Shown in pieces: positions 9,305 through 39,299 of a stretch of DNA of 40,477 bases. The notes under the pieces are model-generated. The model had not been told where the DNA came from. It worked only from the letters and a program-made list of their open reading frames with translations, and did no database searches. Origin of the DNA: Geodermatophilaceae bacterium (GTDB lineage Bacteria > Actinomycetota > Actinomycetes > Mycobacteriales > Geodermatophilaceae); assembly GCA_013812145.1 (NCBI GenBank), contig JACCTY010000047.1, positions 1-40,477 on the forward strand, written 5' to 3'. The position numbers and the translations under genes were made by a program. Every line of letters starts with the position of its first letter. Position 1 is the stretch's first letter.

Positions 9305-9330
9305 CGCAGTCCCCGCAGTACGTTGGCGCG

Positions 9331-19644: not shown

Positions 19645-22056
19645 TCACGACCGCAACCGTGTCATATCGGGGTCGAACAGCGGCTCGGCGGCGACCGTAG
19701 CCGGGATGCGCTCGTCGAAATATCCGATGTGGACAGACGTCCCGGGTTGGCTCAGTTCCACCGGCAGCCAGGCGTAGGCGATCCCTAGCCCGACGGTGTA
19801 GCCGTAGGCCGCGCTGGTGACGTAGCTGACGCAGCGATCCCCGTCGTACACCGGCTCCTTGCCGACGACAACCTTGGTCGGGTCGGCGATCGTCAGGCAG
19901 CAGAGGCGGGAGCGCAGTGGAGCGTCGAGCAACGCCGTACGGCCGAGGAAGTCGCCCTTGTCCATTCGGACGGCGAACCCGAGCCCGGCTTCGGCTGGAT
20001 AGTGGTCCCACGTCATGTCCGCGCCGAACGAGCGGTAGCCCTTCTCCAGCCGCAGACTCGTGAAAGCCCCGCGACCGCCGGCGAAGACGCCGAAGTCCGC
20101 ACCGGCCTCCCACAGGGTGTCCCAGAGCTTCAGTCCCATGTCGGCTGTGGTGTACAGCTCGTATCCGAGTTCGCCGACGTAGGACAGCCGCAGCGCGGTG
20201 GTTGGAACCATGCCGACGGCGAGCTGCCTGCCCCGGAAGTAGCCAAAGCCGAAGTCGTCGCGCGAAACCGCCCGGAGCAGGTCGCGGGCCTGCGGGCCCC
20301 AGACGCCGAGGCAGCACGTACCCGCGGTGATGTCCCGGGCCTCGACGCTGCGGTCGTCCGGGAGGTGGCGAAGGAACCAGTCGACGTCCAGAGCGCCGTT
20401 CCCGCCCACTTGATAGTGGTCCGCGCCGAGCCGGCTAACCGTCACGTCGCTGCGGATTCGGCCGCGCTCGTCCAACAGCAGGCAGTACGTGACCGACCCG
20501 ACGGACTTGTCGACGTTGCCGGTCGTCAACCGTTGCAGGTACGCCGTCGCACCGGGGCCGGTGATCTCGATCCGCTTCAAGGCGGTCATGTCGTAGAGCG
20601 CGACCCGCTCCCGGGTCGCCTGTGCCTCGGCGCCGACGATCGGCGACCAGTAGCGGGCAGCCCAGTCGTTCGGGGTGGCGATGTCGCGACCGTCGAGCAG
20701 GTGCTCGTTCGCGGCGTACCACTGCGGCCGCTCCCAGCCGCTCGCCTCGAGGAACACCGCGCCCAGATCGACCTGACGCGGGTTGAACGGGCTGGTGCGC
20801 AGCGGCCGCGGATGTTCCATCGGCTGCAGCGGGTGCAGTACGTCGTACACCTCGACGAAGTTCTGGCAGCCGCGCGCCAACACGTAGTCCGGCCCCAACT
20901 GGTGGGGCTCGAAGCGGTTCACGTCGCAGTCGTGCAGGTCGACCGACGGCGAGCCGGTGACTATCCACTCGGCGAGGGCGCGGCCGACACCGGCGGCGTG
21001 GGTGACCCAGACAGCCTCGGCGACCCAGAACCCGCGGACGTCCGGCGATTCTCCGATGAGCGGCATGCCGTCGGTGGTGAAGGAGAACAGACCGTTGATG
21101 CCCTCGCCCAGCTCGGCCTCACGCAACGACGGCATGAGCCGCAGCGATTCCTCCCATGCCGGCTCGAAGTCCGCAGGCGTGAATTCCCGGATGCTCGGCA
21201 TCACTGTGGCGTCTTCGCGCCGGGTGATCTCGGACGGGTCGACCGGCATCGGGTCGTGACCGTAGTAGCCGATCCCGACTTGGTCGCCGCGCTCGCGGTA
21301 GTACAGGTCATGGTCCTGGTGGCGCAAGATCGGCCTCGGGACGCCGGTGTCGATTCGATCCAGCTCCGGCACTGCAGTCGTCCACGCGTACTGGTGCGCC
21401 AGCGGTGTGAGCGGCAGCGTCATGCCGACCATGGCGGCGACCGATGGCCCCCAGATGCCGGCGCAGCAGACCACGATGTCCGCGCTGAACCCACCCTGCG
21501 TCGTTTCGACGCCACGGACCCGGCCGTCCTCGACCCGGACATCGAGGACCTCGCAGTCGCCGACGAAGCGCACGCCACGCCCTTCGGCTACCTTGGCCTG
21601 CGCGCTGACCGCAGTGACCGGGTTGGCCAGGCCGTCGGTCGGTGTGTGCAGGCCCCCAAGGATCCGCTCCGGGTCGAGCAGCGGGTGCAGCTTGGCGCAT
21701 TCCTCCGCCGAGACGACCCGGCTGCTGACCCCCCACGAGGTCAGCCAGCCGTGCCGGCGGTGCAGGTCGGCCAGCCGCTCCGGAGTCGTGGCCACCTCCA
21801 AGCCGCCGACCTGCAGGAAGCCCGGTTGTCCGTCGTACTCCAGCCCACAGAACTTCTCGACGGTGTAGCGAGCGAGTTCGGTCATCGTCTTCGACGGGTT
21901 GGCTTGGAAGACCAGACCGGGGGCGTGCGAACTCGATCCGCCGGTGGCGAACAGCGGACCCTGGTCGAGCACCGTGACGTCTGTCCAGCCCAGCGCCGAC
22001 ATCTCCTCGGCGACGGCAGCTCCAACCACGCCGGCCCCGATGACCACTACCTGCAT
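19645..22056 (-). CDS. dmg: Dimethylglycine oxidase (FAD + GcvT-like domains)
   Basis: An 803-residue bifunctional enzyme that oxidises N,N-dimethylglycine to sarcosine and hands the methylene group to tetrahydrofolate. The N-terminus is a DAO-type FAD domain ([17 protein letters not shown] at 3-19). His44 in [12 protein letters not shown] lies where dimethylglycine oxidase/dehydrogenase carries its covalently bound FAD histidine. The C-terminal half is a GcvT-like folate domain ([50 protein letters not shown]). Length is close to the ~830-residue Arthrobacter enzyme. AGGAGGT sits 6 nt before the ATG. It lies between the ABC binding protein and soxB, the expected pathway position. Confidence 0.94.
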
Positions 22057-22099: not shown

Positions 22100-23068
22100 C
22101 TAGCCGAGCCAGCCTTCGACCACGTCGGGGTTGTCCTCGACCCACTGCGCTGCGGCGTCCTCGGGGTCCATCCCGTCCTCGGCGATGTACTTCGCGACCA
22201 GGTTCTGATCGTCGTTGGTCCATTCGAAGTTGGCTACCAGGTCGTACGCCGGACTGCCGGACTCCGCGAAGTCGGTGGCCACGATCTTGTCCAGGATGTA
22301 CTCGGGGTAGTCGCACGCCACTGTCTCGGGGTCGGCGTCGCAGCCCTCTTCATACGGCGGCAGGTTGACCTTGACCAGCGCGATCTCGGACAGGAACCAC
22401 TGCGGGGCGTAGAAGTAGCCGAGCAGCGGTTCCTGGTTCTCCTCGGCCTGCCGGAACGCCTGGATCAGCGCCGGTTCGCTGCCGGCATAGACCACTGTGA
22501 AGTTCAGGCCGAGGTTCTGCACCAGCGCCTCGTCGTTCGTGACGAACGACGGGTCACCGTCGAGCAGCTGGCCCTTGTCGCCGGACTCCGAGGTCCTGAA
22601 CATCTCGGCGTACTTGTTGAGGTTCTCCCACTCGGTGATGTCGGGGTACTCCTCGACCATCCACGGCGGCAGGTACCAGCCGATCACGCCGACGTTGCCG
22701 TTCGGCCCGGCGTCCTGTGCGGTGCCCTGCTCCTCGATGTACTTCTGCTTGAGGTCGTCGTGGCCCCAGTTCTCGATGACTACATCCACTTCGCCGCTGC
22801 CGAAGCCCTGCCAGGCCACCTCCTCCTTGAGCGACTTGTACTCGATGTTGCAGCCGAGTTCGGTTGCCGCGACGTAGCCGACGACGTGCGCCGACGCCTC
22901 GTAACCGACCCAGGGGTTGATGGCGATGTTGAAGTCGCCGCATTCCGCGTCGCCCTCCTGCGCGGCCGGGGCCTCCTCGATATTGCCGCCGCCGCATGCG
23001 GCGACGACGAGACTGCCGGCCGCGATGAGTGCGGCGAGCCTGACAACTCGTGCTCTTCCTGTTCTCAC
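22100..23068 (-). CDS. Glycine betaine/choline ABC transporter substrate-binding lipoprotein
   Basis: A 322-residue OpuAC/ProX-type binding protein. The signal peptide ends in the lipobox LVVAAC with Cys25 lipidated. The mature part has the aromatic-rich pattern of betaine binders (NPWVGYEASAHVV, VVIENWGHDD, VIGWYLPPWMV, YFYAPQWFL), which forms the tryptophan/tyrosine cage for trimethylammonium groups. I cannot say whether it prefers betaine or choline. The GTG at 23068 is favoured because AAAGGAG lies 5-6 nt upstream; a longer frame from 23083 is possible. It follows the permease after a 75-nt gap with two short hairpins. Confidence 0.92.
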   Translation of the reverse strand: MRTGRARVVRLAALIAAGSLVVAACGGGNIEEAPAAQEGDAECGDFNIAINPWVGYEASAHVVGYVAATELGCNIEYKSLKEEVAWQGFGSGEVDVVIENWGHDDLKQKYIEEQGTAQDAGPNGNVGVIGWYLPPWMVEEYPDITEWENLNKYAEMFRTSESGDKGQLLDGDPSFVTNDEALVQNLGLNFTVVYAGSEPALIQAFRQAEENQEPLLGYFYAPQWFLSEIALVKVNLPPYEEGCDADPETVACDYPEYILDKIVATDFAESGSPAYDLVANFEWTNDDQNLVAKYIAEDGMDPEDAAAQWVEDNPDVVEGWLG

Positions 23069-23082
23069 TAGCTCTCCTTTCA

Positions 23083-23128
23083 CGGCCGGTACGCCGGCCG
23101 GCGGGTAGTCACCGACGCCCGAAGGGCG
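23083..23128 (-). other. Two short intercistronic hairpins before the binding-protein gene
   Basis: CGGCCGG (23083-23089) pairs with CCGGCCG (23094-23100) across TACG, and CGCCC (23116-23120) pairs with GGGCG (23124-23128) across GAA. Both lie in the gap between the permease and binding-protein genes. Such hairpins can stabilise the downstream message so the binding protein is made in excess. Confidence 0.45.
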
Positions 23129-23143
23129 GAGGCGTGCAGGTGT

Positions 23144-25156
23144 TCAGCGCCGCCCCTGACGGGCGGCGGCGTGCTGTGTTATCCGGTCGAGCATGATGCC
23201 GAGCGCGACTATCGCGATGCCGGCGGCGAGCCCCTTGCCGAACAGCTGAGCCTGGGAGAAGCCGCTGACCACGGTGTATCCGAGGGCGCCACCTCCCACG
23301 AGACCGCCGATGACGACCATCGACAGCACGTAGAGCAGACCCTGGTTGGAGGCCAGTACGAGAGCGCCGCGCGCCATCGGCAACTGCACCTTGGTGATGA
23401 TCTGGAACGTGCTCGAGCCGGCGGATCGAGCCGCCTCGACAGTTGTCGGCGCGACGCCCCGGATTCCGTCTGCGACGAGCTTGATCGCAGCCGGGCCGGC
23501 ATAGACGATCGCGGCGACGATGGCGGTGAAGCGGCTGGGCCCGAACAGCGCCAGCGCCGGTACGAGGTAGACGAACGGGGGGATCGTCTGCCCCGCGTCG
23601 AGCAGCGGTCGGAGCGCGGTATCGGCCCGCTTGCTGCGTCCCATCCACACGCCGAAAACGACAGCGAGGAACATCACGAGAACGGTCGCGACAAGGGTCA
23701 TCCCCAGGGTGACCATCGAGTCCTGCCAGAGACCGACGCCGAAAATGACGGCCAGGCAGACCGCGGTCGTCAACGCAGGGCGCCAGCCGCCGATCAGGAA
23801 CGCCACGGCGAGGAGCGCCGCAGCCACCAGCCACCAGGGCGAGTCGGCAAGAAGGGACTGGAACGGGTTGAGCAGCCCGTAGGTGAACCCGTCCTTGATC
23901 GCCCCGGTCAGCTGGCCGAAAGTGTCGGTGAACCACTCGGTCGCGGACCCGACCGCATCGGCCAGCGGCCGACCCAGGTCCGGCAGCGTGTCGGGGTCAG
24001 CGGCCCAGAGATAGCTGCGCGACAGGTACACAGCGACCGCCGCCACGACACCACCGCCGATGAGGGCTGCCCGCCGACGACGCGGATCGTGCACCGCGGT
24101 CCGGCGTTCGGCCTCGGCCCGTTCGCTGGCTGCCGTCGTCGTGCGGTCGAGCATGATCGCGATGATCACGATGCACAGTCCGCTCACGAACGCGGTGCCG
24201 ATGTCGAGGGTCTGCAGTGCTTCGATCACCGGCTCGCCGAGCCCCGGCCCGTCGATCAGCGCGGCGATGGTCGCGATCGACAGCGCGGCCATCATCGTCT
24301 GGTTGACCCCGACGATGATCGTCTGCTTGGCCATCGGCAGCTGCACCTTGCGCAGCAGCTGTGCCCGGGTCGACCCCATCGAGGTGGTCGCCTCGATCGT
24401 GGACGGCGCGACCGTGCGCAGACCGTGCGCGGTGATGCGGACGACCGGCGGCAGTGCGTAGATCAATGTGGCGACGACAGCGGCGGACGGCCCGATGCTG
24501 AAGAGCAGGACCAGCGGAAGCAGGTAGACAAAGGACGGCATCGTCTGCATCACGTCGAGCACGGGTGTGACGACCGTCGTGACGGTGCGACTGCGGGCCA
24601 TCGCGATCGCCAGCGGGATCCCGACCGCCACGCTGATCAGTACGGCGGTGAACGTGATGATGAGAAGGTCGATGCTCTCGGTCCAGAACCCGAACACACC
24701 GAAGGCCAGGAAGCTGACCACGACGAGGATGGTGGAGCGCACACCGGCCAGGGCATAGGCGATCCAGGCGGCAACGGCGAGCACCCCGAGCCACCCGATC
24801 TCCGGCACCGGCCGCGGGAAGGCGGGCTGACTGAGCAGATTCTGGGCTGCGGTGACCAGCGCTTCCAGTCCGTCGCTGGCACCGCCGACGACGGTTTCCA
24901 AAAAGAAGTTGCTGTCGCGGGCGGCATCGAAGGCATCCCGCAGATCGTTGAGGCTGCGCTGGAAGTCGGTGAGGGTGGCCCGCCCGAGCGGCAGGGTCGC
25001 CGTGCCCTTGAACAGTGCCCAGCCGAGCGCCCAGATCCCGAGGATCGCTGCCAGCAACACACCGGTACGCCGTACCGGATCGCGCTGCTGCTGTTGGGCT
25101 GTGGGTGGCGGTTCGGGGGCGGCCGGCGCGGCCGGCCGCTCCGCAACGGCGGTCAC
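23144..25156 (-). CDS. Double-length betaine/choline ABC permease
   Basis: At 670 residues this is roughly two ProW/OpuAB permeases in one chain. Each half has a BPD_transp_1 domain with its own EAA loop: STIEATTSMGSTRAQLL then KVQLPMA (residues 252-276), and TTVEAARSAGSSTFQII then KVQLPMA (571-595). Each is preceded by a matching TMPSFVYLLPL or TIPPFVYLVPA segment (about 205-215 and 524-534). A charged linker (340-362) separates the halves. It would form the whole membrane channel, with two ATPase chains docking at the two EAA loops. The GTG at 25156 overlaps the stop of a 60-codon frame upstream by 4 nt. Confidence 0.92.
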   Translation of the reverse strand: MTAVAERPAAPAAPEPPPTAQQQQRDPVRRTGVLLAAILGIWALGWALFKGTATLPLGRATLTDFQRSLNDLRDAFDAARDSNFFLETVVGGASDGLEALVTAAQNLLSQPAFPRPVPEIGWLGVLAVAAWIAYALAGVRSTILVVVSFLAFGVFGFWTESIDLLIITFTAVLISVAVGIPLAIAMARSRTVTTVVTPVLDVMQTMPSFVYLLPLVLLFSIGPSAAVVATLIYALPPVVRITAHGLRTVAPSTIEATTSMGSTRAQLLRKVQLPMAKQTIIVGVNQTMMAALSIATIAALIDGPGLGEPVIEALQTLDIGTAFVSGLCIVIIAIMLDRTTTAASERAEAERRTAVHDPRRRRAALIGGGVVAAVAVYLSRSYLWAADPDTLPDLGRPLADAVGSATEWFTDTFGQLTGAIKDGFTYGLLNPFQSLLADSPWWLVAAALLAVAFLIGGWRPALTTAVCLAVIFGVGLWQDSMVTLGMTLVATVLVMFLAVVFGVWMGRSKRADTALRPLLDAGQTIPPFVYLVPALALFGPSRFTAIVAAIVYAGPAAIKLVADGIRGVAPTTVEAARSAGSSTFQIITKVQLPMARGALVLASNQGLLYVLSMVVIGGLVGGGALGYTVVSGFSQAQLFGKGLAAGIAIVALGIMLDRITQHAAARQGRR

Positions 25157-25331
25157 GGGTTCGCCTCCCCAGGTCGGCTTTGCCCCCCGGGCGCGTGGAC
25201 ACGCCGCTCGACACGCCGAAGGAATCTGCGCTCAGGGGGCAACGTCACGACCCCGGAGGAGGTTGCCCCCTGGGCACGCGGACACGCCCGGTGAAACCGC
25301 CGCACAAGGGCAATGTCGAGATGGTCCGCGG

Positions 25332-25335
<4 letters not shown>
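25153..25335 (-). CDS. Candidate 60-aa coupled ORF between ATPase and permease (doubtful)
   Basis: The 175-nt gap between the ATPase and permease genes is read through by one open frame of 60 codons. Its ATG overlaps the ATPase stop (ATGA) and its TGA overlaps the permease GTG (GTGA), a perfect translational bridge. The product is basic and of no known family (start [20 protein letters not shown]). Against it, the DNA is largely repeat sequence and stop-free frames this long are not rare at high GC. It may simply let ribosomes carry over to the permease. Confidence 0.35.
25180..25289. repeat. Direct and inverted GC-rich repeats inside the ABC operon
   Basis: Two direct copies of a 27-nt element, at 25180-25206 and 25263-25289, match at 23 of 27 positions and begin TTGCCCCC. 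Between them AGGGGGCAAC (25234-25243) is an inverted copy of the start, forming a 10-bp perfect stem with GTTGCCCCCT (25262-25271) across 18 nt. It may be a REP-like element or mRNA-processing structure. Confidence 0.6.
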
Positions 25336-26437
<1,102 letters not shown>

Positions 26438-26441
<4 letters not shown>

Positions 26442-28129
26442 GCATGTCCTCCAGTCACGACGGGAACCGGTGGCTCGAGCGGGCTGCCGTCGCGGTAGGA
26501 GTACCAGGCGGCGTGCGACGGTGCGAGCGGCGTGTTGCCGAGGATCAGATCCGCGGACTTCTCGGCCAGCATCATCACCGGCGCATAGATGTTGCCGTTG
26601 GTGATATGGGGCATTGAGGAGGCGTCGACGACACGCAGGCCGTCGGTTCCGTGCACTTGCATGGTCGCCGGGTCGAGGACGGACAGGTCGTCGACTCCCA
26701 TCCGCGCCGTGCCCGACGGGTGCAGCGCCGTCTCGGCATCGGCGGCGACCCAGTCCAGGATCTGCTGATCGGTTTGTACGCCGGGACCTGGGGACAGTTC
26801 GCCGCCGTTGTAAGGCTCGAACGCGGGCTGGTTGAGGATGTCGCGGGCCGCGCGTACGCACTCAACCCACTCCTGCCGGTCCTGCGCGGTGGACAGGTAG
26901 TTGAACCGCAGCGCCGGATGCTCCCGCGGGTCGGTGGACTTGATCGCCACACTGCCGCGGGCGTCTGAGTACATCGGACCGATGTGCACCTGGTATCCGT
27001 GGCCCTTGGTCGGGGAGCTGCCGTCGTACCGGATCGCGATCGGCAGGAAATGGAACATCAGGTTGGGGTAGTCGACGGAGTCGTTGCTGCGGGCGAAGCC
27101 GCCGCCCTCGAAGTGGTTCGTCGCGCCGAGTCCCCGGCGGAGGAACAACCACTCGGCGCCGACCCGTGGCCTGTTCCGCCAGCGCAGCCCAGGCGCGATC
27201 GAGACCGGAAGCTTGGAGGCGTACTGGATGTAGACCTCGAGGTGATCCTGTAGCGCTTCACCCACTCCTACAACGCTGGCGATGGGGTCAACTCCCCGGG
27301 CAGTTAGCAGGTCAGGGTTGCCGATTCCGGAGAGTTGGAGGAGTTGGGGGGAGTTGATCGCTCCGCCGCAGAGGATGACCTCGGCGGCGTCGGCGCTTCG
27401 GCGTACCCGGCCGGTCTTGAGATAGTCGACGCCGACCGCGCGGTTTCCGACGAAACGAACCTTCGTCGCCAACGCGAGGGTCTCGACGGTGAGATTCTTC
27501 CGGTGCCGGACCGGGTGCAGGTAGGCGCGGGAGGCGCTCAGCCTCCGTCCATTGTGGATGTTGCGGTCGAAGCGGCCGAAACCCTCCTGCCGGTAGCCGT
27601 TGACGTCGTCGGTCAGCGGATACCCGGCCTGTACGGCGGCGTCGAAGAACGCTTGAAACAACGGGTTCGTGGCCGGACCGCGCTCCAGGATCAGCGGCCC
27701 GTCGCCGCCGCGCCACTCATCCGCGCCGGCCAGGCAGTTCTCCATCCGCTTGAAGTACGGAAGGCAGTGCGCGTAGTCCCACTGGCTCATGCCGTTCTCG
27801 CGTGCCCAGCGCTCGTAGTCCATCGGGTTGCCCCGCTGGAAGATCATCCCGTTGATGCTGCTGCTGCCACCGAGCACCTTGCCGCGGGCGTGCGAGATCC
27901 GCCGGCCGTTCATGTGCGGCTCGGGCTCCGAGACGTAACGCCAGTCATAGAGCCGGCTGCCGATCGGAAACGGCAGTGCGGCCGGCATGTGGATGAACGG
28001 GTCCCAGCTCCAGTCCGGGCGGCCCGCCTCCAGCACCAGGACGGTAGTCGACGGGTCGGCGCTGAGCCGGTTCGCGAGTACGCAGCCCGCCGAGCCGCCG
28101 CCGACGATGACGAAGTCGTATTTTTTCAC
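26438..28129 (-). CDS. betA: Choline dehydrogenase, GMC family
   Basis: A 563-residue GMC flavoprotein. The FAD motif is [20 protein letters not shown] (residues 4-23), followed by [18 protein letters not shown], the GMC signature 1, and [16 protein letters not shown], signature 2. The active-site end carries [10 protein letters not shown] (His) and [19 protein letters not shown] (His/Asn pair region), which is close to BetA. It oxidises choline to betaine aldehyde and can often continue to betaine. The GTG at 28129 overlaps the betB stop (GTGA). It sits between the aldehyde dehydrogenase and the importer. Confidence 0.92.
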
Positions 28130-29595
28130 GAGCCGAACCAGTGCTGCGGGGCCGGCCGGATGTTGTGCCAGATGTGCTTGGTCTCCCGGTACTCGTCGAG
28201 GCCCGCCCGGCCGAGTTCGCGGCCGATGCCGGACTGCTTGTAGCCGCCCCACTCGGCTTGCGGTACATACGGGTGGTAGTCGTTGATCCAGACCGTTCCC
28301 ATCCGCAGCCGGGCGGCGACCCGCTCGGCCCGGCCGGCGTTCGACGTCCAGACCGCGCCGGCCAGTCCGAAGCGGCTGTCGTTGGCGATCCGGACCGCGT
28401 CGTCCTCGTCGGTGAACGTCTCCACGGTGAGCACCGGTCCGAAGGACTCCTCCTGAACGACGGCCATCTCGCTGGTGCAGTCGTCCAGGATGGTCGGTAG
28501 GTAGTAGTACCCCTCGGCGAGCCCGGGGTCATCCGGCTGGCCGCCGCCGCAGCGAAGCCGCGCGCCGGCAGCGACCCCGGCGCCGACGTACTCCTCGATC
28601 TTGTCGCGGTGGGCGGCGGAGATGAGCGGGCCGGTCTCGGCAGCCGGATCGAACGGGCCGCCCAGGCGGATCTTCTCCGCTCGCGCGACGAGTTCGTCGA
28701 CGAACTGGTCGTGGATCTCCTCGGCAACGACGAGTCGGGCACCGGCGGAGCAGACCTGACCGGAGTGCAAGAAGACGGCGGTCAACGCCAGGTCGAGCGC
28801 GGCGTCCAGTTCAGCGTCGGCGAACACGATGTTCGGGTTCTTGCCGCCTAGCTCGAGCGCCACCTTCTTGACTGTGCCGGCGGCCGCGGCCATCACGGCG
28901 CGACCGGTGGCCAGGCCGCCGGTGAAGGACACCAGGTCGACGTCGGGGTGCTCGGCCAGCGGCGCGGCGACCTCTGACCCGGCGCCGAGGACCAGGTTGG
29001 CGACACCGGCCGGCAGGCCTACGTCAGCGAGTATCCGCATCAGCAGTATCGCCGTGGACGGCGTCAACTCACTCGGCTTGAGCACGAAGGTGCAACCGGC
29101 AGCCAGCGCCGGCGCGACCTTCCAGGCGACCTGCAGCAGCGGATAGTTCCAGGGGGTGATGAGCCCACACACCCCTACCGGCTCGTGTCCGACCCGGCTG
29201 ACGATGTCAGGTCTGCCGGTGTCCACAACACGGCCGGCGTCCTCGCCCGCCGTACCGGCGTAGTAGCGGAGGACCGACACGACGTCGTCCACGTCGTATT
29301 CGCTCTCCACGTACCGCTTACCGGTGTCCAGCGACTCGGCCCTGGCGACCGCCGGCTTGTCCCGGACCAGCCGGTCGGCGACACGGTGGAGCAGCGCACC
29401 CCGCTCGAGGGCGGACGTCGTAGGCCATTCGCCGTGGTCGAAGGCGGCCCGAGCAGCGGCGATGGCAAGGCCGGTGTCTTCAGCTGTTGCCTCGTCCAGC
29501 GTCGCGACAAGGGTGCCGTCGGCCGGGCAACGGATCTCACGTCGGCCACCCGCGCGCGCCTGAACCCATCGTCCACCGACGAAGAGTTCAGGCAC
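28126..29595 (-). CDS. betB: Betaine aldehyde dehydrogenase
   Basis: A 489-residue NAD(P)+-dependent aldehyde dehydrogenase. Catalytic residues are in place: Asn150 in TPWNYPLLQ, Lys173 in VLKPSE, Glu248 in LELGGKNPN and Cys282 in SGQVCSAG. The C-terminal [19 protein letters not shown] segment is similar to GbsA-type betaine aldehyde dehydrogenases. It oxidises betaine aldehyde to glycine betaine. The GTG at 29595 is chosen because GGAGG is just upstream; an upstream GTG-opened frame extends to 29655 but would cover the promoter. It is the first gene of the ~15-kb leftward run and follows an operator region. Confidence 0.92.
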
Positions 29596-31598: not shown

Positions 31599-32387
31599 TC
31601 AGGCATCGCGCCAGCCGAGCCGCTCGGACACCTGCTGCGCGGCTGCGGTGAGCAGCGGAAGCAATTCGGCCACTCGCGCCTCATTCAGGCGGAAGGTGGG
31701 ACCGGAGACGCTCATCGACGCACGCACGTCGCCACTGGCGTTGCGGATCGGCGCTGCGACCGCCGTCAGACCCAGCTCGAGTTCGTCGACGGCGACGGCG
31801 TACCCCCGCTCGCGGACGTCGGCGACAGCAGCCCGCAGCCGCTTGACCGAGCTGATCGTCGCCGTGGTGAAGGATCGCAGCTTCCCGGCGGTCGCCGAGA
31901 TCTGCGCGTCCGGGAGCCCGCTCAGCAGCACCTTGCCGTTGGATGTCGCGTGCAGCGGGATCCGCTGCCCTACCCAGTTGTGCGACTGCAACGCCGATGA
32001 CCCCGCCACCTGGTCGACGTAGAGCGCCGCACCATCGGACAGCACGGTGAGGTTGACGGTCTCACCGGTTTGTGCGGCCAGCTGCCGGGTGATCGCTCGG
32101 CTCTCCTGCACCAGGTCGAGCCGGGCAGTGGTGGCTCCGGCCAGCCGCAGAATCCCCACGCCGAGGCAGTACTTTCCACGCTCGGAGTTCTGCTCGACCA
32201 GGCTACGGTTCTCCAGCGCGGCGATGAGCCGGAACGCCGTCGACTTGTGGACGCCGAGCTCCGCGGCGATCTCGGTGACGCCGGCTTCTCCTGTCCGGGC
32301 GAGGATCTCCAGGACGGTGACCGCCCGGTCGACGGATTGGACCGTGGTCAGTACCCCATCCACTCGCGTCGGCGTGGTGTTGCCCAT
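31599..32387 (-). CDS. IclR-family regulator of the betaine genes (inferred)
   Basis: A 262-residue IclR protein. The winged HTH covers about residues 14-75 (SVDRAVTVLEILARTGEAGV; HKSTAFRLIAALENRSLVEQ). The C-terminal effector domain contains ETVNLTVLSDGAALYVDQV, HNWVGQRIPLHATSNGKVLL and ERGYAVAVDELELGLTAVAAP. It lies directly upstream of betT on the same strand, and matching operator-like repeats occur before betT, before betB and over its own start codon. It probably senses choline, betaine or a catabolite; that is inference from position. Confidence 0.9.
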   Translation of the reverse strand: MGNTTPTRVDGVLTTVQSVDRAVTVLEILARTGEAGVTEIAAELGVHKSTAFRLIAALENRSLVEQNSERGKYCLGVGILRLAGATTARLDLVQESRAITRQLAAQTGETVNLTVLSDGAALYVDQVAGSSALQSHNWVGQRIPLHATSNGKVLLSGLPDAQISATAGKLRSFTTATISSVKRLRAAVADVRERGYAVAVDELELGLTAVAAPIRNASGDVRASMSVSGPTFRLNEARVAELLPLLTAAAQQVSERLGWRDA

Positions 32388-32980: not shown

Positions 32981-34420
32981 TCAGTCGCCGAGCTCGGCGC
33001 GCCGGCGTACGACGTACGCCTCCAACTCCGCGCGGATGGCGTTGTCGAGCGGTGGCTGCTCGTAGGAGTCCAATGTGGACTGATAGATCTTGGTTGCCCG
33101 CGCGTTCGCGTCGGCGCCGCCGCCGCGCATCCAGCGCTCGTAGTTCTCCGACGAGGACAGCAGCGGCCGGTAGAAGCAGGTCCGGAACCGCTCCATCGTG
33201 TGCTCCGCGCCCAGGAAGTGCCCGCCGTGGCCGACCTCCTGGTGCGCTCCGAACGCGAGTGACTCCTCGGAGATCTCCAGCGGGGTGAACTCCACCCGCA
33301 TCATCTGCAGCAACTCGATGTCGACGATGAACTTCTCATAGCCGGCGACCAGCCCGCCCTCGAGCCACCCGGCGCTGTGCATCACCCAGTTGACCCCGGC
33401 GAGGAACGTCGGCAGCAACGTCATCAATGCCTCGTAGCCGCCCTGCGCATCGGCCACCTGGCTGGAAGTCATCGCACCGCCGGAGCGGAACGGCAACCCG
33501 AAGTGCCGGGCGATCTGGCCCGTGCACAGCAGCCCGACCGCGGATTCCGGCGTACCGAAGCACGGCGAGCCGGACTGCATGTCGATGTTGGACAGGAACG
33601 AGCCGAAGATCACCGGCGATCCGGGCCGGATGAGCTGCGACAGCGCGATGCCGCTCAACGCCTCGGCCATCTGCTGCACCAAAGCGGACGGGATCGTCAC
33701 CGGCGACATCGCGCCCATGAGCAGGAACGGCGTAAGTACGACTGCCTGGTTCGCCGCGGAGTACTCGAACTGCGCCTCCAGCATCCGGTCGTCCCAGCGC
33801 AGCGGCGAGTTGCAGTTGATCAGGCTGATCGTCACCGGCGCCTGCTCGATGACGTCGCGGCCGCCGAACAGGATCGAACTCATCTCGATGGTGTCCCGCG
33901 CGTTGACCCCGGAGACGACGTTGCCCATGTACGCCTTGTCGGTCAGCGTCTGCAGCGCGTAGGTCATGTCCAGATGCCGGGAGTCCAGCGGCGCGTCGTT
34001 GGGCTCGCAGATCACCCCGCCGGCGGAGTCGAGCACGCTGAAGGACTGCGACAGCTTGGTGAAGTTCCGGTAGTCCTCCATGGTGGCGTCCCGGCGTACC
34101 TCGCCCTGTCGCACGAACGGCGGGCCGTAGACCGCGCCGAAGGACATCATGTCGCCGCCGATGTGCAGCGAGTTGGCCGGATTGCGGGCCGCGACGTCGA
34201 ACTCGTGGGGCGCCTTGGCGACCTGCGCCAGCACGAAGTCCGGGTCCAGGAAGACGGTGTTCTCCTCGACTCGCTGACCTGCCTGCCGGAACAGCTCCAA
34301 CGCCCGGTCGGACATGAACTCGACGCCGATGTCGGTGAGGATTCGCCGCCAGCCGCCGTCCAGGACCGCCATCGCGTCCTCGGACAGGATCTCGTACCGC
34401 GGCATGGTGTTGCGGAACAT
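32981..34420 (-). CDS. mtgB: Pyrrolysine-free MttB-family methyltransferase, MtgB-like (glycine betaine:corrinoid)
   Basis: A 479-residue protein of the trimethylamine methyltransferase superfamily. Family features are the N-terminal LDGGWRRILTDIGVEFMSD, DSAGGVICEPNDAP (131-144), SPLRWDDRMLEA (205-216) and the conserved FRSGGAMTSSQVADAQGGYE (311-330). There is no in-frame TAG, so it is not a pyrrolysine enzyme. Such MttB relatives transfer one methyl group from a quaternary amine to a cognate corrinoid protein; MtgB uses glycine betaine and makes dimethylglycine. Carnitine, proline betaine or gamma-butyrobetaine are alternatives. The start has AGGAGG 5 nt upstream. It is divergent from its corrinoid protein and MtgA-like partner, and the downstream operon consumes dimethylglycine. 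Confidence 0.85.
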   Translation of the reverse strand: MFRNTMPRYEILSEDAMAVLDGGWRRILTDIGVEFMSDRALELFRQAGQRVEENTVFLDPDFVLAQVAKAPHEFDVAARNPANSLHIGGDMMSFGAVYGPPFVRQGEVRRDATMEDYRNFTKLSQSFSVLDSAGGVICEPNDAPLDSRHLDMTYALQTLTDKAYMGNVVSGVNARDTIEMSSILFGGRDVIEQAPVTISLINCNSPLRWDDRMLEAQFEYSAANQAVVLTPFLLMGAMSPVTIPSALVQQMAEALSGIALSQLIRPGSPVIFGSFLSNIDMQSGSPCFGTPESAVGLLCTGQIARHFGLPFRSGGAMTSSQVADAQGGYEALMTLLPTFLAGVNWVMHSAGWLEGGLVAGYEKFIVDIELLQMMRVEFTPLEISEESLAFGAHQEVGHGGHFLGAEHTMERFRTCFYRPLLSSSENYERWMRGGGADANARATKIYQSTLDSYEQPPLDNAIRAELEAYVVRRRAELGD

Positions 34421-34459
34421 GTAGTCCTCCTTGACGCGATTACGTGCCTGACCTCATAG

Positions 34460-34479
34460 TGTGGGACAGCAGTTCCACA
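34460..34479. promoter_or_regulatory. IclR-type operator between mtgB and the second iclR gene
   Basis: TGTGGGACAGCAGTTCCACA has 8-bp arms with one mismatch and a 4-nt spacer. It sits in the 86-nt divergent gap, 40 nt before the mtgB ATG and 27 nt before the iclR ATG, so one regulator could control both directions. The sequence differs from the betB/betT operator. Confidence 0.65.
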
Positions 34480-34506
34480 TAGTGGCTTAACCCGGGCGGG
34501 AGGGCA

Positions 34507-35255
34507 ATGACAGGGACGCAGGCGATCGATCGGGCGGCCGAGCTGGTGTCCCTCGTCGTACACGCCCAGCACCCCTCCAGTTTCGCGGATCTCCTGACCC
34601 GAACCGGCCTGGCCAAGTCAACCGGATCACGGTTGCTGCAGGCGTTGGAGCGCCATCAACTCCTGGAACGGGACAGCGGCGGAGCCTTTCGTCCCGGTGC
34701 ACTCTTCGCCCTGTACGCCGCCCGGCACGAGCCGATCATCGAACTCGAGCGGATCGCCGAGCCGTTGCTGCAGCGGATCGGCGAGGTCACCGGAGAGACC
34801 GTCAACTTGGCGATCCCTCGCGGGCAGAGCGTCGTGCAGATCGCTCAGGTCGACTCGCGATTCATGCTCGGGACGAGCAACTGGGTGGGCGTCGACGTAC
34901 CGGCCCACTGCTCCGCCCTCGGCAAGGTTTTCTACGCGCACGGCCGGATCCCGCTTCCAGCCGGGTTGTTGGAGCGCCGCACGCCACGCACCCTGACCTC
35001 CGGTCAGCTTCGGCGGGAGTTGCGGACGGTTCTGGAGCGCGGCTACGCCACCACCCGCGGCGAGTTGGAGCCGGGGCTCGACGCGGTCGCCGTACCGGTC
35101 CATGGCCATGACGGCGCTGTCGTGGCCGCGCTCAGCGTCTCCGGCCCCGACGTACGCCTGGCCGACCAACTCGATGCCATCGGAACGCTGCTCGTCAAGG
35201 AAATCGCCACTCTGTCCGCCTTGCTCGGACACCACCCCGGAAGGGAAGGGGCGGC

Positions 35256-35259
<4 letters not shown>
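34507..35259 (+). CDS. IclR-family regulator of the corrinoid methyltransferase genes (inferred)
   Basis: A 250-residue IclR protein. The N-terminal winged HTH runs from about residue 6 to 65 (QAIDRAAELVSLVVHAQHPS; LAKSTGSRLLQALERHQLLE). The effector domain has ETVNLAIPRGQSVVQIAQVD, SNWVGVDVPAHCSALGKVFY and ERGYATTRGELEPGLDAVAV. GGGAGGG precedes the ATG. It is divergent from mtgB over an inverted repeat, and its stop overlaps the start of the corrinoid-protein gene (ATGA), so it is made in the same message as the system it probably controls. Confidence 0.9.
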
Positions 35260-35921
<662 letters not shown>

Positions 35922-35930
35922 GGATTCGGG

Positions 35931-36785
35931 ATGCACACCACATTGAGCTCGGCCACCCGCGAGGTAGTCATCGGCCACGACCAGCCGTTCTGCCTGATCG
36001 GCGAGCGGATCAATCCGACCGGTCGGAAGATCTTCCAGGAACAGCTTCGCGCCGGTGACCTCTCGGCGATCGAGAAGGACGTGGCCGCGCAGGTCGCCGG
36101 TGGGGCCAGCGTGCTCGACGTCAACATGGGCGTGCCGCTGACCGACGAGCCGGCGCTGCTGGCCAACGCGATCAAGCTGGTGCAGAGCCTCACCGATCTC
36201 CCGATCTGCATCGACTCATCCGTCGTAGAGGCGCTGGAGGCGGGGCTGGCGGCCTATGACGGCCGGGCGCTGGTGAACTCGGTGACCGCCGAGGACGAGC
36301 GGATGGAGCTGATCCTGCCGCTGGTGAAGCGGTACGACGCCGCAGTCATCGCGCTGCCCAACGACGAGTTCGAGATCCCGATGGAAGCCGACCGCCGGCT
36401 CGAACTGGTCCGGCACATCGTGGACGTGGCCACCGGGAAGTACGGCATGGCGGTAGAGGACATCGTGATCGATCCGCTGGCCATGCCGATCGGGGCGGAC
36501 ACGACAGTGGTCGCGACGACACTGGAGACGATCTCGCGGATCCGCTCCGAGTTCGGGCTCAACATGTGCCTCGGCGCGTCCAACGTCTCGTTCGGAATGC
36601 CGGGGCGGCACACGCTCGGGGCGACCTTCCTGCCGATGGCGATGTCCCATGGGCTGACGAGCGCGATCATGGACACCCGCTCAGAGCACATCGTCGAAGC
36701 GGTCAAAGCGGCGGACCTGTTGCTGGGCAACGACGAGTGGGGCATGAACTGGATCGCCGCCCACCGGGCCAAACAGGCAGTATGA
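35931..36785 (+). CDS. mtgA: Methylcorrinoid:tetrahydrofolate methyltransferase, MtgA/AcsE-like
   Basis: A 284-residue pterin-binding TIM-barrel enzyme of the MeTr/AcsE group. Motifs are IGERINPTGRK (23-33), GASVLDVNMG (58-67), ICIDSSV, ALVNSVTAE, a DPLAMPIG segment and CLGASNVSFGMPGR near the C-terminus. In the MtgABC system it moves the methyl group from methyl-Co(III) corrinoid protein to tetrahydrofolate, giving 5-methyl-THF. It begins 10 nt after the corrinoid gene and its stop overlaps the next start (ATGA). The direction (away from betaine) is inferred from the neighbours. Confidence 0.9.
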   Translation: MHTTLSSATREVVIGHDQPFCLIGERINPTGRKIFQEQLRAGDLSAIEKDVAAQVAGGASVLDVNMGVPLTDEPALLANAIKLVQSLTDLPICIDSSVVEALEAGLAAYDGRALVNSVTAEDERMELILPLVKRYDAAVIALPNDEFEIPMEADRRLELVRHIVDVATGKYGMAVEDIVIDPLAMPIGADTTVVATTLETISRIRSEFGLNMCLGASNVSFGMPGRHTLGATFLPMAMSHGLTSAIMDTRSEHIVEAVKAADLLLGNDEWGMNWIAAHRAKQAV

Positions 36786-38692
36786 CGCGAGCGTCGCGGT
36801 CCGACCTGCACCGGGAAGGGCTGCTCGACCCGCCCGGTACTCCCGAGGTCTCGCACGACGGGTCGGGACGGGTCCGGCTGCACTTCCTGCCGCTCGAGCG
36901 TGACGTGCGGGTACCGCCGGGGGTGACCGTGTTCGACGCCGCGAGCTGGAACGGCATCGCGATCGACTCCACCTGCGGTGGGCACGGAACGTGCAAGAAG
37001 TGCCGGATCCGCATCACCTCCGGCTCGGTGCCGGTGTCGCGGCTGGACGTGCGGTGCTTCACCGCCGACGAGCTGCGGGACGGCTGGCGGCTGGCCTGCA
37101 TGGCCGCCGCGCTGGGCGACGTCTCGGTCGACGTACCGCCGCTGTCGACCCGACCAAAGGCGGCCACCGTCGGGGTCGGACGGCAGGTGATCCTGCGGCC
37201 GGCGATCCAGAAGCGGTACGTCGAACTGGCCGAGCCGTCGTTGCAGGATCAGCGGCCGGACCTCGACCGTGTCCTCGATGCGATCGACGACCTGGAGCTG
37301 CGGCCGGATCTGCATGTGCTGCGGCGGCTGCCCGGCGTACTGCGGTCGTCGTCGTTCGCGGTGACAGCCGTCGTTGTCGACGACGTCCTGGTCGACGTGG
37401 AGCCGGGCGACACGACCGGGCGCCGGTTCGGGTTGGCAGTCGACCTCGGTACGACGACGGTGGTGGCGACCCTGCTGGACACATCGACCGGTACGCCGGC
37501 TGCGGTGGCATCGATGCTGAACAAGCAGCAGCCGTTCGGGGCGGACGTGATCACCCGGATCAGCGCGACCATGCTAGACCCCTCGGCGCTGGTGCGACTG
37601 CGGACGTTGGCGCAGGAGACGCTGGCCGAACTGGCGGTCGAGGTGTGCGCGCAGGCCGAGGTGGACCCGGCCGAGGTGTACGAGGTGGCGCTGGCCGGAA
37701 ACGCCACCATGACGGCGCTGGTGCTGGGGATCGACCCGGAGCCGCTGGGAGTGGCACCGTTCGTGATGTCCACGGCGTCCTGGCCGGCGTTATTGAAGGC
37801 CTCGGATCTCGGGCTGCCCGTGCATCCGGCCGCGCCTGCAGTGGTCTTTCCCGCTTTGGGCGCGTACGTCGGCGGGGACATCGTGGCCGGGATGTTGGCC
37901 TCGGGGATGGACCGGGACAAGCGGCTGCGGCTGTTCATCGACGTGGGGACGAACTGCGAGATCGTGCTCGGGGACGGCGAGCGGATCGTCGCGACCGCGG
38001 CACCGGCCGGTCCGGCGTTCGAGGGCGGGGCGATCCGGTGCGGCATGCGGGCAGCCGACGGGGCGATCGAGGTAGTCAAGCTGTCCGAGGACGATGTAGG
38101 CCTGCAGGTGATCGGCGACGTCGACGCCGTGGGCTTGTGCGGCTCCGGCCTGGTCGACGCAGTGGCCGAACTGGTGCGGTTCGGGCTGCTGGATTCGACC
38201 GGCCGGCTGGTCAGTCCTGAGGACGCCAAGGAGATCGCACCGGGGCTGGCCGACCGGTTCTGCTCGGTCGGGGCGGAGCGGGTGTTCGTGCTGGCGTGGC
38301 GCGGAGTCGAGGCTGCCGAGTCGGTGTACCTGTCCCAGCGGGATGTCCGCGAGCTGCAATTCGCCAAGGCGGCGATCGCGACGGGATGGACGCTGTTGCT
38401 GGCGGAGTTCGGGATCGAACCGGGCGACGTTCAGCAGGTGCTCCTGGCCGGTTCGTTCGGGAGCTATCTGTCGCCGGCCTCGGCGGTGCGGATCGGCCTG
38501 GTCCCGAAACTGTCGGTTCTGCGCATCGTGAGCGCGGGCAACGTGGCAGGCGAGGGCGCGAAGATGGTGCTGCTCTCGATGCAGGAACGGGCTGGTGCGG
38601 CCGCGCTCTTGAGGGAGGTGCGCTATGTCGAGCTCTCCGACCGACCGGACTTCAACGACCGATTCGTCGACATGCTCGCGTTCCCGGGCTGA
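36782..38692 (+). CDS. Corrinoid-activation ATPase with N-terminal [2Fe-2S] domain (RACE/DUF4445)
   Basis: A 636-residue reductive activator of corrinoid enzymes. The N-terminal ferredoxin domain has Cys65, Cys71, Cys74 (CGGHGTCKKC) and Cys106, a C-x5-C-x2-C-x31-C plant-type [2Fe-2S] pattern. The C-terminal ASKHA ATPase domain has FGLAVDLGTTTVVATLLD (216-233), FIDVGTNCEIVLG and LLAGSFGSYLSPASAVRIGL. It restores inactive Co(II) corrinoid to Co(I) using ATP and an electron donor. The ATG overlaps the mtgA stop. Methanogen RamA uses [4Fe-4S] centres, so this is the bacterial RACo type. No dedicated reductase for it is seen here. Confidence 0.9.
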   Translation: MTRASRSDLHREGLLDPPGTPEVSHDGSGRVRLHFLPLERDVRVPPGVTVFDAASWNGIAIDSTCGGHGTCKKCRIRITSGSVPVSRLDVRCFTADELRDGWRLACMAAALGDVSVDVPPLSTRPKAATVGVGRQVILRPAIQKRYVELAEPSLQDQRPDLDRVLDAIDDLELRPDLHVLRRLPGVLRSSSFAVTAVVVDDVLVDVEPGDTTGRRFGLAVDLGTTTVVATLLDTSTGTPAAVASMLNKQQPFGADVITRISATMLDPSALVRLRTLAQETLAELAVEVCAQAEVDPAEVYEVALAGNATMTALVLGIDPEPLGVAPFVMSTASWPALLKASDLGLPVHPAAPAVVFPALGAYVGGDIVAGMLASGMDRDKRLRLFIDVGTNCEIVLGDGERIVATAAPAGPAFEGGAIRCGMRAADGAIEVVKLSEDDVGLQVIGDVDAVGLCGSGLVDAVAELVRFGLLDSTGRLVSPEDAKEIAPGLADRFCSVGAERVFVLAWRGVEAAESVYLSQRDVRELQFAKAAIATGWTLLLAEFGIEPGDVQQVLLAGSFGSYLSPASAVRIGLVPKLSVLRIVSAGNVAGEGAKMVLLSMQERAGAAALLREVRYVELSDRPDFNDRFVDMLAFPG

Positions 38693-39299
38693 CCGGGTCG
38701 CGGTCATCGCGTGCGGCGCACTGTCGAGAGACATCGGCTCGATCGTCGATCGGAACGGCTGGGCTGTGGACGTGTATCCGCTGCCGCCGCTGCTGCACAA
38801 TCGACCCGAGCGGATCGCGGCTGCGGTCGAGGCTTCGGTCGACGACCTGGAGCTGCGCTACGACCGGATCGGGATCGCATACGCCGACTGCGGCACATAC
38901 GGCGCGCTCGACGAAGTCTGCAGGCGGCGAGGCCTGCAGCGGTTGCCGGGCCTGCACTGCTACGACCTCTATGCCGGCCCGGAGCGGATCCGGACGTTGA
39001 TCGAGGATGAGCCGGGAACCTATTTCCTCACGGACTTCCTGGTCGCCTCCTTCGACCGGACGGTGACCCAAGAGCTGGGCCTGGACCGGCATCCCGAGCT
39101 GAGGGACGCCTACTTCGGGAACTACACCCGCGTCGTCTGGCTGGCAACCCGCCCGACAGCCGAGTTGGCGACCCTCGCCGACCGCGCCGCGACAACCCTC
39201 GGCCTGCCGCTCAGCGTGGTGACTGCGCGCCTTGACAGACTCACGCTGGCGATGAGCGACCTTCTTGCTCCGGCGCGTGCCTTCCAGCCGGGAACGTAG
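38625..39299 (+). CDS. DUF1638-family protein
   Basis: A 224-residue DUF1638 protein. Visible family pieces are VAVIACGALSRDI, IGIAYADCGTYGALDEVC and LPGLHCYDLYAG, with conserved cysteines at about 30, 89, 98 and 111. This family is often beside MttB-type methyltransferases and corrinoid activators; its activity is unknown. The ATG at 38625 has GGGAGGTG 4 nt upstream, but it lies inside the activator gene, so the two reading frames overlap by 68 nt. No downstream start before the conserved VAVIACGAL segment exists, so the overlap looks real. Confidence 0.85.
   Translation: MSSSPTDRTSTTDSSTCSRSRADRVAVIACGALSRDIGSIVDRNGWAVDVYPLPPLLHNRPERIAAAVEASVDDLELRYDRIGIAYADCGTYGALDEVCRRRGLQRLPGLHCYDLYAGPERIRTLIEDEPGTYFLTDFLVASFDRTVTQELGLDRHPELRDAYFGNYTRVVWLATRPTAELATLADRAATTLGLPLSVVTARLDRLTLAMSDLLAPARAFQPGT

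What the first reader, a model, noticed from the sequence alone, without database searches (positions are those of the whole stretch)
32981..39299. Complete Pyl-free B12 methyltransferase module (MtgB, corrinoid protein, MtgA, activator, DUF1638) in an apparently aerobic actinobacterium
All parts of an anaerobe-style glycine betaine demethylase are present and intact: MttB-family enzyme without in-frame TAG, corrinoid protein with D102-x-H104-x-x-G107, MeTr-type methyltransferase, [2Fe-2S] activator and DUF1638. It stands next to O2-using dimethylglycine and sarcosine oxidases. The adjoining operon lacks the betaine to dimethylglycine step, which this module could supply; aerobes usually use a Rieske GbcAB or a homocysteine methyltransferase. 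How the oxygen-sensitive Co(I) state is maintained is an open question.
Basis: partly seen in the sequence, partly recalled or inferred. Interest (0 to 1): 0.85.

Follow-up and report, generated by a model that had tools for sequence, protein, structure and literature searches.

The report
B12 betaine demethylase in soil actinobacteria
A soil actinobacterium carries a complete vitamin-B12-dependent gene set that probably strips the first methyl group from glycine betaine, beside genes that process the product; the same set recurs in many related bacteria and resembles one recently shown to work in air-breathing marine bacteria.

Summary
The module is real and complete. Window 32981-39299 encodes a non-pyrrolysine MttB-family enzyme, divergent from IclR regulator - corrinoid protein - pterin methyltransferase - RACo activator - DUF1638. 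It adjoins choline/betaine uptake, BetA, betaine-aldehyde dehydrogenase, a dimethylglycine dehydrogenase-type protein and sarcosine oxidase BDAG.

It is no oddity: in the 80 actinobacterial loci fetched, every missing core gene falls where a contig ends. MTHFR-like, PurU and Fhs genes lie beside it in many relatives (not in the window), so the methyl probably goes to THF and is oxidised.

Corrections: the 'MtgA' is AcsE/MtgD-type, not of the D. hafniense MtgA sequence family. The aerobic principle is published (Ruegeria pomeroyi, 2025). RACo and DUF1638 are the likely Co(I) rescue pair. The own genome keeps full-length MetH, so a Ruegeria-style methionine role looks unlikely. It also holds a BHMT1-like gene and a Rieske oxygenase nearest quaternary-amine types, so Mtg is the best but not the only betaine-to-dimethylglycine candidate.

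New here: a conserved palindrome between the divergent units and an invariant Cys3-His set in DUF1638. Verdict: new member of a known kind.

The parts
32981..34420 (-). mtgB-like gene: non-pyrrolysine MttB-family methyltransferase, 479 aa
   Evidence: PF06253 610.8 bits; 40.9% identical to D. hafniense MtgB (2qne) and 43.5% to 4yyc
34421..34506 (.). divergent promoter region with an operator-like inverted repeat at 34472-34488 (GTTCCA-N5-TGGAAC, 3 mismatches in the window)
   Evidence: 62 of 77 mttB upstream regions have the repeat with 2 or fewer mismatches, against 15 of 1520 random stretches; the motif was derived from the same 77 regions
34507..35259 (+). iclR1: IclR-family regulator, first gene of the corrinoid operon; overlaps the corrinoid gene
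   Evidence: PF01614 105 bits, PF09339 35 bits
35256..35921 (+). mtgC-like corrinoid protein, 221 aa, D102-x-H104-x-x-G107
   Evidence: best NCBIfam NF047996 MtgC 203 bits (below cut-off 370); PF02310, PF02607
35931..36785 (+). methyl-THF:corrinoid methyltransferase, AcsE/MtgD type (not MtgA)
   Evidence: PRK07535 307 bits (cut-off 259); PDB 2yck 146 bits; 6SJ8/6SK4 (MtgA) not listed at E up to 10
36782..38692 (+). RACo-type ATP-dependent corrinoid activator with N-terminal [2Fe-2S] domain, 636 aa
   Evidence: AcsV NF040756 424 bits (below cut-off 800); PDB 3zyy 324 bits; PF00111, PF17650, PF17651, PF14574
38697..39299 (+). DUF1638 protein (longest frame starts at 38625; the start is judged by homologues)
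   Evidence: PF07796 83.6 bits; C6, H34, C65, C88 invariant
31599..32387 (-). iclR2: IclR regulator of the choline/betaine side
   Evidence: PF01614 154.5 bits
29792..31372 (-). BCCT transporter, glycine betaine type
   Evidence: PF02028 568 bits; NF047988 533 bits (below cut-off 650)
28126..29595 (-). betaine-aldehyde dehydrogenase
   Evidence: TIGR01804 615 bits (below cut-off 668.6)
26438..28129 (-). choline dehydrogenase BetA
   Evidence: TIGR01810 828 bits (over cut-off 732)
22100..26441 (-). betaine/choline ABC transporter: ATPase 25332-26441, permease 23144-25156, binding protein 22100-23083
   Evidence: proV TIGR01186 353 bits (over cut-off), TIGR03416 365 bits (over cut-off), TIGR03414 44 bits (below cut-off)
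19645..22056 (-). dimethylglycine dehydrogenase-type FAD/GcvT protein
   Evidence: DAO 198, FAO_M 77, GCV_T 242, GCV_T_C 76 bits
14752..19637 (-). heterotetrameric sarcosine oxidase soxB (18408-19637), soxD (18130-18408), soxA (15359-18133), soxG (14752-15369)
   Evidence: TIGR01373 623 and TIGR01374 121 bits (over cut-off), TIGR01372 1117 and TIGR01375 103 bits (below cut-off)

Best explanation
A dedicated catabolic glycine betaine demethylase of the MtgBCD kind. The MttB-family enzyme moves one methyl from glycine betaine to Co(I) on the corrinoid protein, releasing dimethylglycine. The AcsE/MtgD-type protein passes the methyl to tetrahydrofolate, and methyl-THF is oxidised onward. Dimethylglycine goes to the neighbouring DMG dehydrogenase-type protein and sarcosine oxidase. 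Co(II) that forms in air is returned to Co(I) by RACo (ATP plus a [2Fe-2S] electron), with DUF1638 as a helper of unknown chemistry. IclR1 probably controls both divergent units through the palindrome between them. Shown here: gene content, motifs, recurrent synteny, conserved palindrome. Inferred: substrate, direction, enzymology, regulation.
For: Complete module. In 80 loci: corrinoid protein in 77, methyltransferase in 75, RACo in 71, DUF1638 in 66; every miss is in a locus whose contig ends within 4.7 kb upstream of mttB; BADH in 55, BetA in 52. Beside it in relatives: MTHFR-like in 55, PurU in 50, Fhs in 20 of 80 loci, one representative of each typed by Pfam. Of 49 MttB-bearing genomes searched, 7 have a GbcA-like protein at 366 bits or more and 16 no match at all. 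Active-site positions as in MtgB and 4yyc: L or M at the Pyl place, His at Tyr364, Tyr at Gly110. Genetics of the same parts in R. pomeroyi and of RamA-like and DUF1638 proteins in P. inhibens. DUF1638 is in 41 of 49 MttB-bearing genomes, against 65 of all 296 sampled.
Against: No substrate data. MtgB of D. hafniense falls outside the 57-row clade that holds the window, so betaine specificity cannot be carried over by orthology. The MTHFR-like, PurU and Fhs neighbours are absent from the window and from the gene lists of its two closest loci, L002 and L031. The own genome has a BHMT1-like gene next to betaine-type transporter genes and a Rieske protein nearest the QA oxygenases in the same window. 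GbcAB lies right beside the module in N. limicola, which may mean redundancy or a different substrate. CbiC was not found in the own genome, so the cofactor may have to be taken up. Corrinoid, RACo, BADH and BCCT proteins score below their best NCBIfam equivalog or exception cut-offs.
Confidence: 0.7

Rival explanations
1. The betaine-to-dimethylglycine step is carried mainly by another enzyme of this genome (a BHMT1-like homocysteine methyltransferase on contigs C6/C54, or the Rieske oxygenase at 8183-9304), and the B12 module is secondary or acts on another donor.
For: BHMT1-like gene: the full-length same-genus copy has vertebrate BHMT1 as closest PDB match (180 bits) and clusters with SoxB-like, IclR, ProV and OsmF-like genes; present in 5 of 5 MttB-bearing genomes of the family sample. 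Rieske: best NCBIfam is GbcA 144 bits, best PDB is carnitine oxygenase CntA; a BetI-type TetR is divergent to it.
Against: Two of three BHMT aromatic-box residues differ (W44 to F, Y160 to T; positions counted in the alignment, roles recalled). The Rieske protein's best stretch to GbcA covers 30-226 of 420 positions, at the level of generic Rieske proteins in other genomes (up to 181 bits), and no GbcB above 120 bits is present. Of 47 other named MttB-bearing genomes, 7 have GbcA-like and 1 a BHMT1-like protein (58% identity), so 39 have neither; weaker PF02574 matches (107 bits or less) in many of these are not excluded as betaine-using enzymes.
Confidence: 0.15
2. The module demethylates another quaternary amine (carnitine, gamma-butyrobetaine, proline betaine, choline) and sits near betaine genes because all feed the same pathway.
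For: MttB-family members at 53% identity (MtyB and MtcB) are specialised for different amines (passages); the window enzyme is only 40.9% identical to MtgB; a Rieske gene nearest carnitine oxygenase lies nearby.
Against: Choline-to-betaine enzymes are in over half of the 80 loci (BADH 55, BetA 52) and a DMG dehydrogenase-type protein in 15 by tblastn or 22 by clusters. Of the recurrent neighbour clusters, 10 representatives were typed by Pfam and none is carnitine- or proline-betaine-specific.
Confidence: 0.1
3. As in Ruegeria, the corrinoid and pterin proteins double as a split methionine synthase.
For: Same parts list including RACo and DUF1638.
Against: The own genome has full-length MetH with its activation domain (TIGR02082 1461 bits, PF02965). 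In 44 of 47 named MttB-bearing genomes a homocysteine-methyltransferase match lies in an open frame of 1173 or more codons, the size of MetH (read; MetH itself not scored there). No PF02574 gene is among the neighbour clusters typed, though the contig of L002 has one some 7 kb from mttB.
Confidence: 0.05

Closest known systems
MtgBCD (+ RamA, DUF1638) of Ruegeria pomeroyi and relatives (PMC12478193)
   Same: PF06253 enzyme, corrinoid protein, pterin-binding methyltransferase, corrinoid activator and DUF1638 in aerobic bacteria; DMG/sarcosine steps often nearby; an MTHFR takes methyl-THF onward
   Different: Full MetH kept in the own genome; divergent block with an IclR regulator and palindrome; Actinomycetota; MTHFR-like, PurU and Fhs neighbours in relatives
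MtgABC of Desulfitobacterium hafniense (glycine betaine, anaerobic)
   Same: MttB-family donor enzyme and corrinoid protein; methyl to THF
   Different: MtgA is of a different sequence family; MtgB falls outside the clade that holds the window
4yyc, putative trimethylamine methyltransferase (rhizobial origin recalled; function untested)
   Same: Best PDB match, 420 bits; same 57-row clade in the tree
   Different: Only 43.5% identical; falls in the other part of that clade
Split methionine synthase of Phaeobacter inhibens (PMC5764234)
   Same: B12 protein, pterin protein, RamA-like protein and DUF1638 needed together in an aerobe
   Different: Methionine synthesis rather than amine demethylation; partner is a PF02574 protein, not PF06253

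Membership tests
MtgBCD-type B12 glycine betaine demethylase (aerobic type) | PF06253 donor enzyme without pyrrolysine | tested here: met
   610.8 bits, no in-frame stop; M at the Pyl position
MtgBCD-type B12 glycine betaine demethylase (aerobic type) | stand-alone corrinoid protein with D-x-H-x-x-G | tested here: met
   PF02310 and PF02607; D102/H104/G107
MtgBCD-type B12 glycine betaine demethylase (aerobic type) | pterin-binding methyltransferase of PF00809 type | tested here: met
   PF00809 93 bits, PRK07535 over cut-off
MtgBCD-type B12 glycine betaine demethylase (aerobic type) | corrinoid activator and DUF1638 partner | tested here: met
MtgBCD-type B12 glycine betaine demethylase (aerobic type) | demethylates glycine betaine | not testable with these tools
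   needs enzyme assay or mutant; only gene context here
D. hafniense MtgABC system | MtgA-family methyltransferase (6SJ8) | tested here: not met
   6SJ8 and 6SK4 absent from the 17 matches at E up to 10, while AcsE structures match at 146 bits
NCBIfam MtgC (NF047996, NF047995) | score over the curated cut-off | tested here: not met
   203 of 370 and 163 of 310 bits
RACo/AcsV reductive activators of corrinoid proteins | N-terminal [2Fe-2S] domain plus linker, middle and ASKHA domains | tested here: met
   PF00111, PF17650, PF17651, PF14574, all over cut-off
NCBIfam AcsV (NF040756) | score over the curated cut-off | tested here: not met
   424 of 800 bits
Substrate clades MtcB, MtpB, MtyB | clusters with the characterised enzyme | not tested
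   their sequences were not obtained; the 5 PDB matches are 4yyc, MtgB (two) and MttB (two)
GbcA glycine betaine monooxygenase (for the window's Rieske protein) | match at the level of GbcA-like actinobacterial proteins | tested here: not met
   144 bits, best stretch 30-226 of 420, against 366-442 bits over nearly all positions in 7 genomes; cut-off 670 reached by none
Dual-function (methionine synthase) MtgCD | lack of MetH (in about 70% of MtgBCD genomes per PMC12478193) | tested here: not met
   full MetH in the own genome

The most novel reading that the evidence does not exclude
Actinobacteria hold a dedicated, IclR-controlled, oxygen-tolerant B12 demethylase lineage in which DUF1638 is a metal or Fe-S protein (ligands C6, H34, C65, C88) that works with RACo to keep corrinoid usable in air. 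The four residues are invariant even in distant DUF1638 proteins and lie after the first, second and third strands and in a later loop of a predicted Rossmann-like fold, consistent with one shared site.
Probability: 0.3. Interest if true: 0.62.

Novelty: new member of a known kind. Interest (0 to 1): 0.42.

Why it matters
It extends the recently described aerobic B12 route for glycine betaine from marine Proteobacteria to a conserved gene block in Actinomycetota, many of them named Nocardioides strains. That makes it testable in such strains, most of which show neither a GbcA-like nor a BHMT1-like protein (39 of 47 searched). It ties RACo and DUF1638 to keeping Co(I) chemistry running in oxygen and gives a concrete hypothesis for DUF1638.

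Tried and rejected
MtgA label: rejected by the absence of 6SJ8/6SK4. Pyrrolysine: no in-frame stop. Riboswitch: no Rfam match in the window at gathering thresholds. sigma-70 and terminator scans: 1 and 3 sites against 0.5 and 3.4 in shuffles, so chance level, though the one promoter-like site (34431-34460, plus strand) lies between mttB and iclR1. GbcAB in the own genome: best GbcB 120 bits, one PF00848 protein at generic level. Mutual exclusion of MttB and GbcB-like proteins within the family: 5 and 9 of 96 genomes, overlap 0, expected under 1, so not informative; and GbcA-like proteins coexist in 7 of 49 genomes elsewhere. MetH loss: not seen. Tree: 63 rows, with 20 of the 80 named loci; midpoint root; long branches flagged. 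SoxB hits (10 of 80): only 3 (L054, L072, L073, 77-80%) are true SoxB level, 7 at 24-26% are cross-hits to DMG dehydrogenase-type proteins. The 'ATPase' query was an overlapping wrong frame (25153-26445); the right one is 25332-26441, so that count is not used. The co-occurrence P of 2e-25 takes no account of relatedness. The palindrome was found by word counts in the same 77 regions and its control stretches may overlap real sites.

Literature. Judged by titles and abstract starts, plus passages of three papers opened afterwards, none describes this module in Nocardioides; Geodermatophilaceae was not searched by name. Nearest: PMC12478193 gives 5% of TARA mtgC reads to Actinomycetota; PMC10805028 reports Actinobacteriota MAGs in a mire expressing methylated-amine demethylation genes, some with pyrrolysine mttB. 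What was read: PMC12478193 parts 1-3 of 6 and its bioinformatics section; PMC5764234 passages and one section; PMC7154762 part 1 of 2; PMC8604678, PMC9842639, PMC12155760, PMC6081815, PMC10805028 and PMC6299022 passages; others as listings.

Full report
WHAT IS THERE. The module is real. On the minus strand lies an MttB-family gene (32981-34420). Divergent from it, on the plus strand, lie iclR1, corrinoid protein, pterin methyltransferase, RACo and DUF1638 (34507-39299), with start/stop overlaps at iclR1/corrinoid and methyltransferase/RACo. Family searches support each assignment. The minus strand beyond MttB holds a GNAT gene, iclR2, BCCT transporter, betaine-aldehyde dehydrogenase, BetA, a betaine-type ABC transporter, a DMG dehydrogenase-type protein and soxBDAG. 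Two same-genus contigs and one same-family contig have the lengths of named Geodermatophilaceae MAG contigs (15693, 26190 and 3324 bases), so the window is most likely from such a MAG (3.08 Mb, 95% complete).

RECURRENCE. A scan of named genomes found 330 stretches that encode a relative of the MttB protein. Only the best 80 were kept; all 80 are Actinomycetota by title, 42 of them Nocardioides, at 78-95% identity. By tblastn of window proteins on these 80 loci the corrinoid protein is in 77, methyltransferase in 75, RACo in 71, DUF1638 in 66; each miss is in a locus whose contig ends within 4.7 kb upstream of mttB. BADH is in 55, BetA in 52, a DMG dehydrogenase-type protein in 15 (22 by clusters), SoxB at 77-80% in 3 (flanks are 10 kb at most). 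Clustering of called genes found three more recurrent neighbours: MTHFR-like in 55 loci, PurU-type (ACT plus formyl-transferase domains) in 50, formate-THF ligase in 20. These are the enzymes expected if methyl-THF is oxidised, as proposed for MetF2 in R. pomeroyi. They are not in the window nor in the gene lists of its closest loci L002 and L031. The own genome has a normal MTHFR and a second, divergent one elsewhere (C70), 29-32% identical to the recurrent type. In a sample of its family the MttB gene is rare, 5 of 96 genomes; in a phylum-wide draw 49 of 296 have the Pfam family.

ENZYME. The window protein is 40.9% identical to D. hafniense MtgB, 43.5% to 4yyc and 24.3% to pyrrolysine MttB. 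At the three MttB active-site positions named in PMC9842639 (Pyl334, Tyr364, Gly110) it has Met, His and Tyr. Of 25 rows of its clade 19 have Leu and 6 Met, 24 His, 24 Tyr; of 31 other non-pyrrolysine rows 20 Leu and 1 Met, 30 His, 25 Tyr; MtgB and 4yyc have Leu, His, Tyr. In a 63-row tree it sits in a 25-row actinobacterial clade (100/100); MtgB lies outside the 57-row clade that holds the window, 4yyc and alphaproteobacterial plasmid copies (100/100). Orthology to MtgB is therefore not shown. The pterin protein matches AcsE structures (146 bits), and MtgA (6SJ8, 6SK4; codes from PMC7154762) does not appear at E up to 10, so in kind it corresponds to the pterin-binding MtgD of R. pomeroyi; a direct comparison with MtgD was not made. 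A Paracoccus aminovorans plasmid carries the same parts plus MTHFR genes in one cluster, at 44-49% identity for MttB, corrinoid protein, methyltransferase and DUF1638, and 35% for RACo.

COMPETING ROUTES. I asked for the genomes of 50 of the 80 loci; 49 were held, two of them (G445, G446) showing the same contigs as G002 and G001. Of the 49, 7 have a GbcA-like protein at 366-442 bits (cut-off 670, reached by none), 16 have no match, and 26 have only matches of 181 bits or less. In N. limicola gbcA and gbcB lie directly beside the module. In the own genome the only PF00848 match is in the window itself (8183-9304); it scores 144 bits to GbcA, overlaps an FAD oxidoreductase gene and faces a BetI-type TetR gene. 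It is not GbcA by score, but a quaternary-amine role is possible. The genome also has a BHMT1-like gene split over contigs C6 and C54; its full-length same-genus copy matches vertebrate BHMT1 at 180 bits, with W44 to F and Y160 to T. Among 54 handles searched, 8 have it at 58% identity or more: five genomes of the window's family, two duplicates of these, and N. hwasunensis. So in 39 of 47 other named genomes neither a GbcA-like nor this BHMT1-like protein is seen; weaker PF02574 proteins there (107 bits or less) are not excluded. In those genomes the B12 module is the best betaine demethylase candidate. The window's own genus is less clear-cut.

METHIONINE. R. pomeroyi uses MtgC and MtgD for methionine too. 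Here full-length MetH with its reactivation domain is present, so a dual role is unlikely.

REGULATION. The mttB upstream regions share an inverted repeat GTTCCA-N5-TGGAAC: 62 of 77 have it with 2 or fewer mismatches, against 15 of 1520 random stretches of the same loci. The motif came from the same regions, and many loci are close relatives. The window copy has 3 mismatches. IclR1 as its binder is inferred.

OXYGEN AND DUF1638. RACo is of the structurally known type (3zyy, 324 bits). In aerobic P. inhibens a RamA-like protein and DUF1638 are both needed for B12 methionine synthesis, and the authors had no specific proposal for DUF1638. Here DUF1638 co-occurs with MttB in 41 of 49 genomes; 8 lack it, and 24 of 65 DUF1638 genomes lack MttB. 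C6, H34, C65 and C88 are invariant wherever aligned, including 22 distant rows recovered from the 30 phylum loci (C6 in 19, gap in 3). A metal or cluster site is a hypothesis. A B12-synthesis marker (CbiC) was not found in the own genome, so corrinoid may be taken up.

VERDICT. Real, well conserved and functionally coherent; most likely an aerobic B12 glycine betaine demethylase. The principle was published for Proteobacteria in 2025. The actinobacterial form, its retained MetH, its palindrome and the DUF1638 ligand set are the additions.

Noticed in passing
window 6588-9930: Rieske oxygenase alpha (8183-9304) overlapping an FAD oxidoreductase (6588-8183), divergent from a BetI-type TetR gene (9331-9930); the only Ring_hydroxyl_A match of the genome, function unknown.
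   Followed up: partly
G000 contigs C6 (L134:1-774) and C54; L187:3898-10905: BHMT1-like homocysteine methyltransferase clustered with SoxB-like, IclR, ProV and OsmF-like genes in the same genus; aromatic box partly changed.
   Followed up: partly
L034:2159-4650: Nocardioides limicola carries gbcAB directly beside the B12 module: two possible betaine routes in one locus.
   Followed up: partly
L037:19028-20485: A Jatrophihabitans MAG has a second MttB-family gene near the module, 56% identical to the window protein, with Gln instead of the usual His at the Tyr364 position.
   Followed up: no
G294:C4 and G062:C12: MttB-family genes with one in-frame TAG in other Actinomycetota, possible pyrrolysine users (pyrrolysine mttB in Actinobacteriota is already reported in PMC10805028).
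   Followed up: no
window 34472-34488 and 77 upstream regions: Conserved inverted repeat GTTCCA-N5-TGGAAC between mttB and iclR1.
   Followed up: yes
G000 whole genome: No CbiC (PF02570) match, so the cofactor of the module may come from outside.
   Followed up: no
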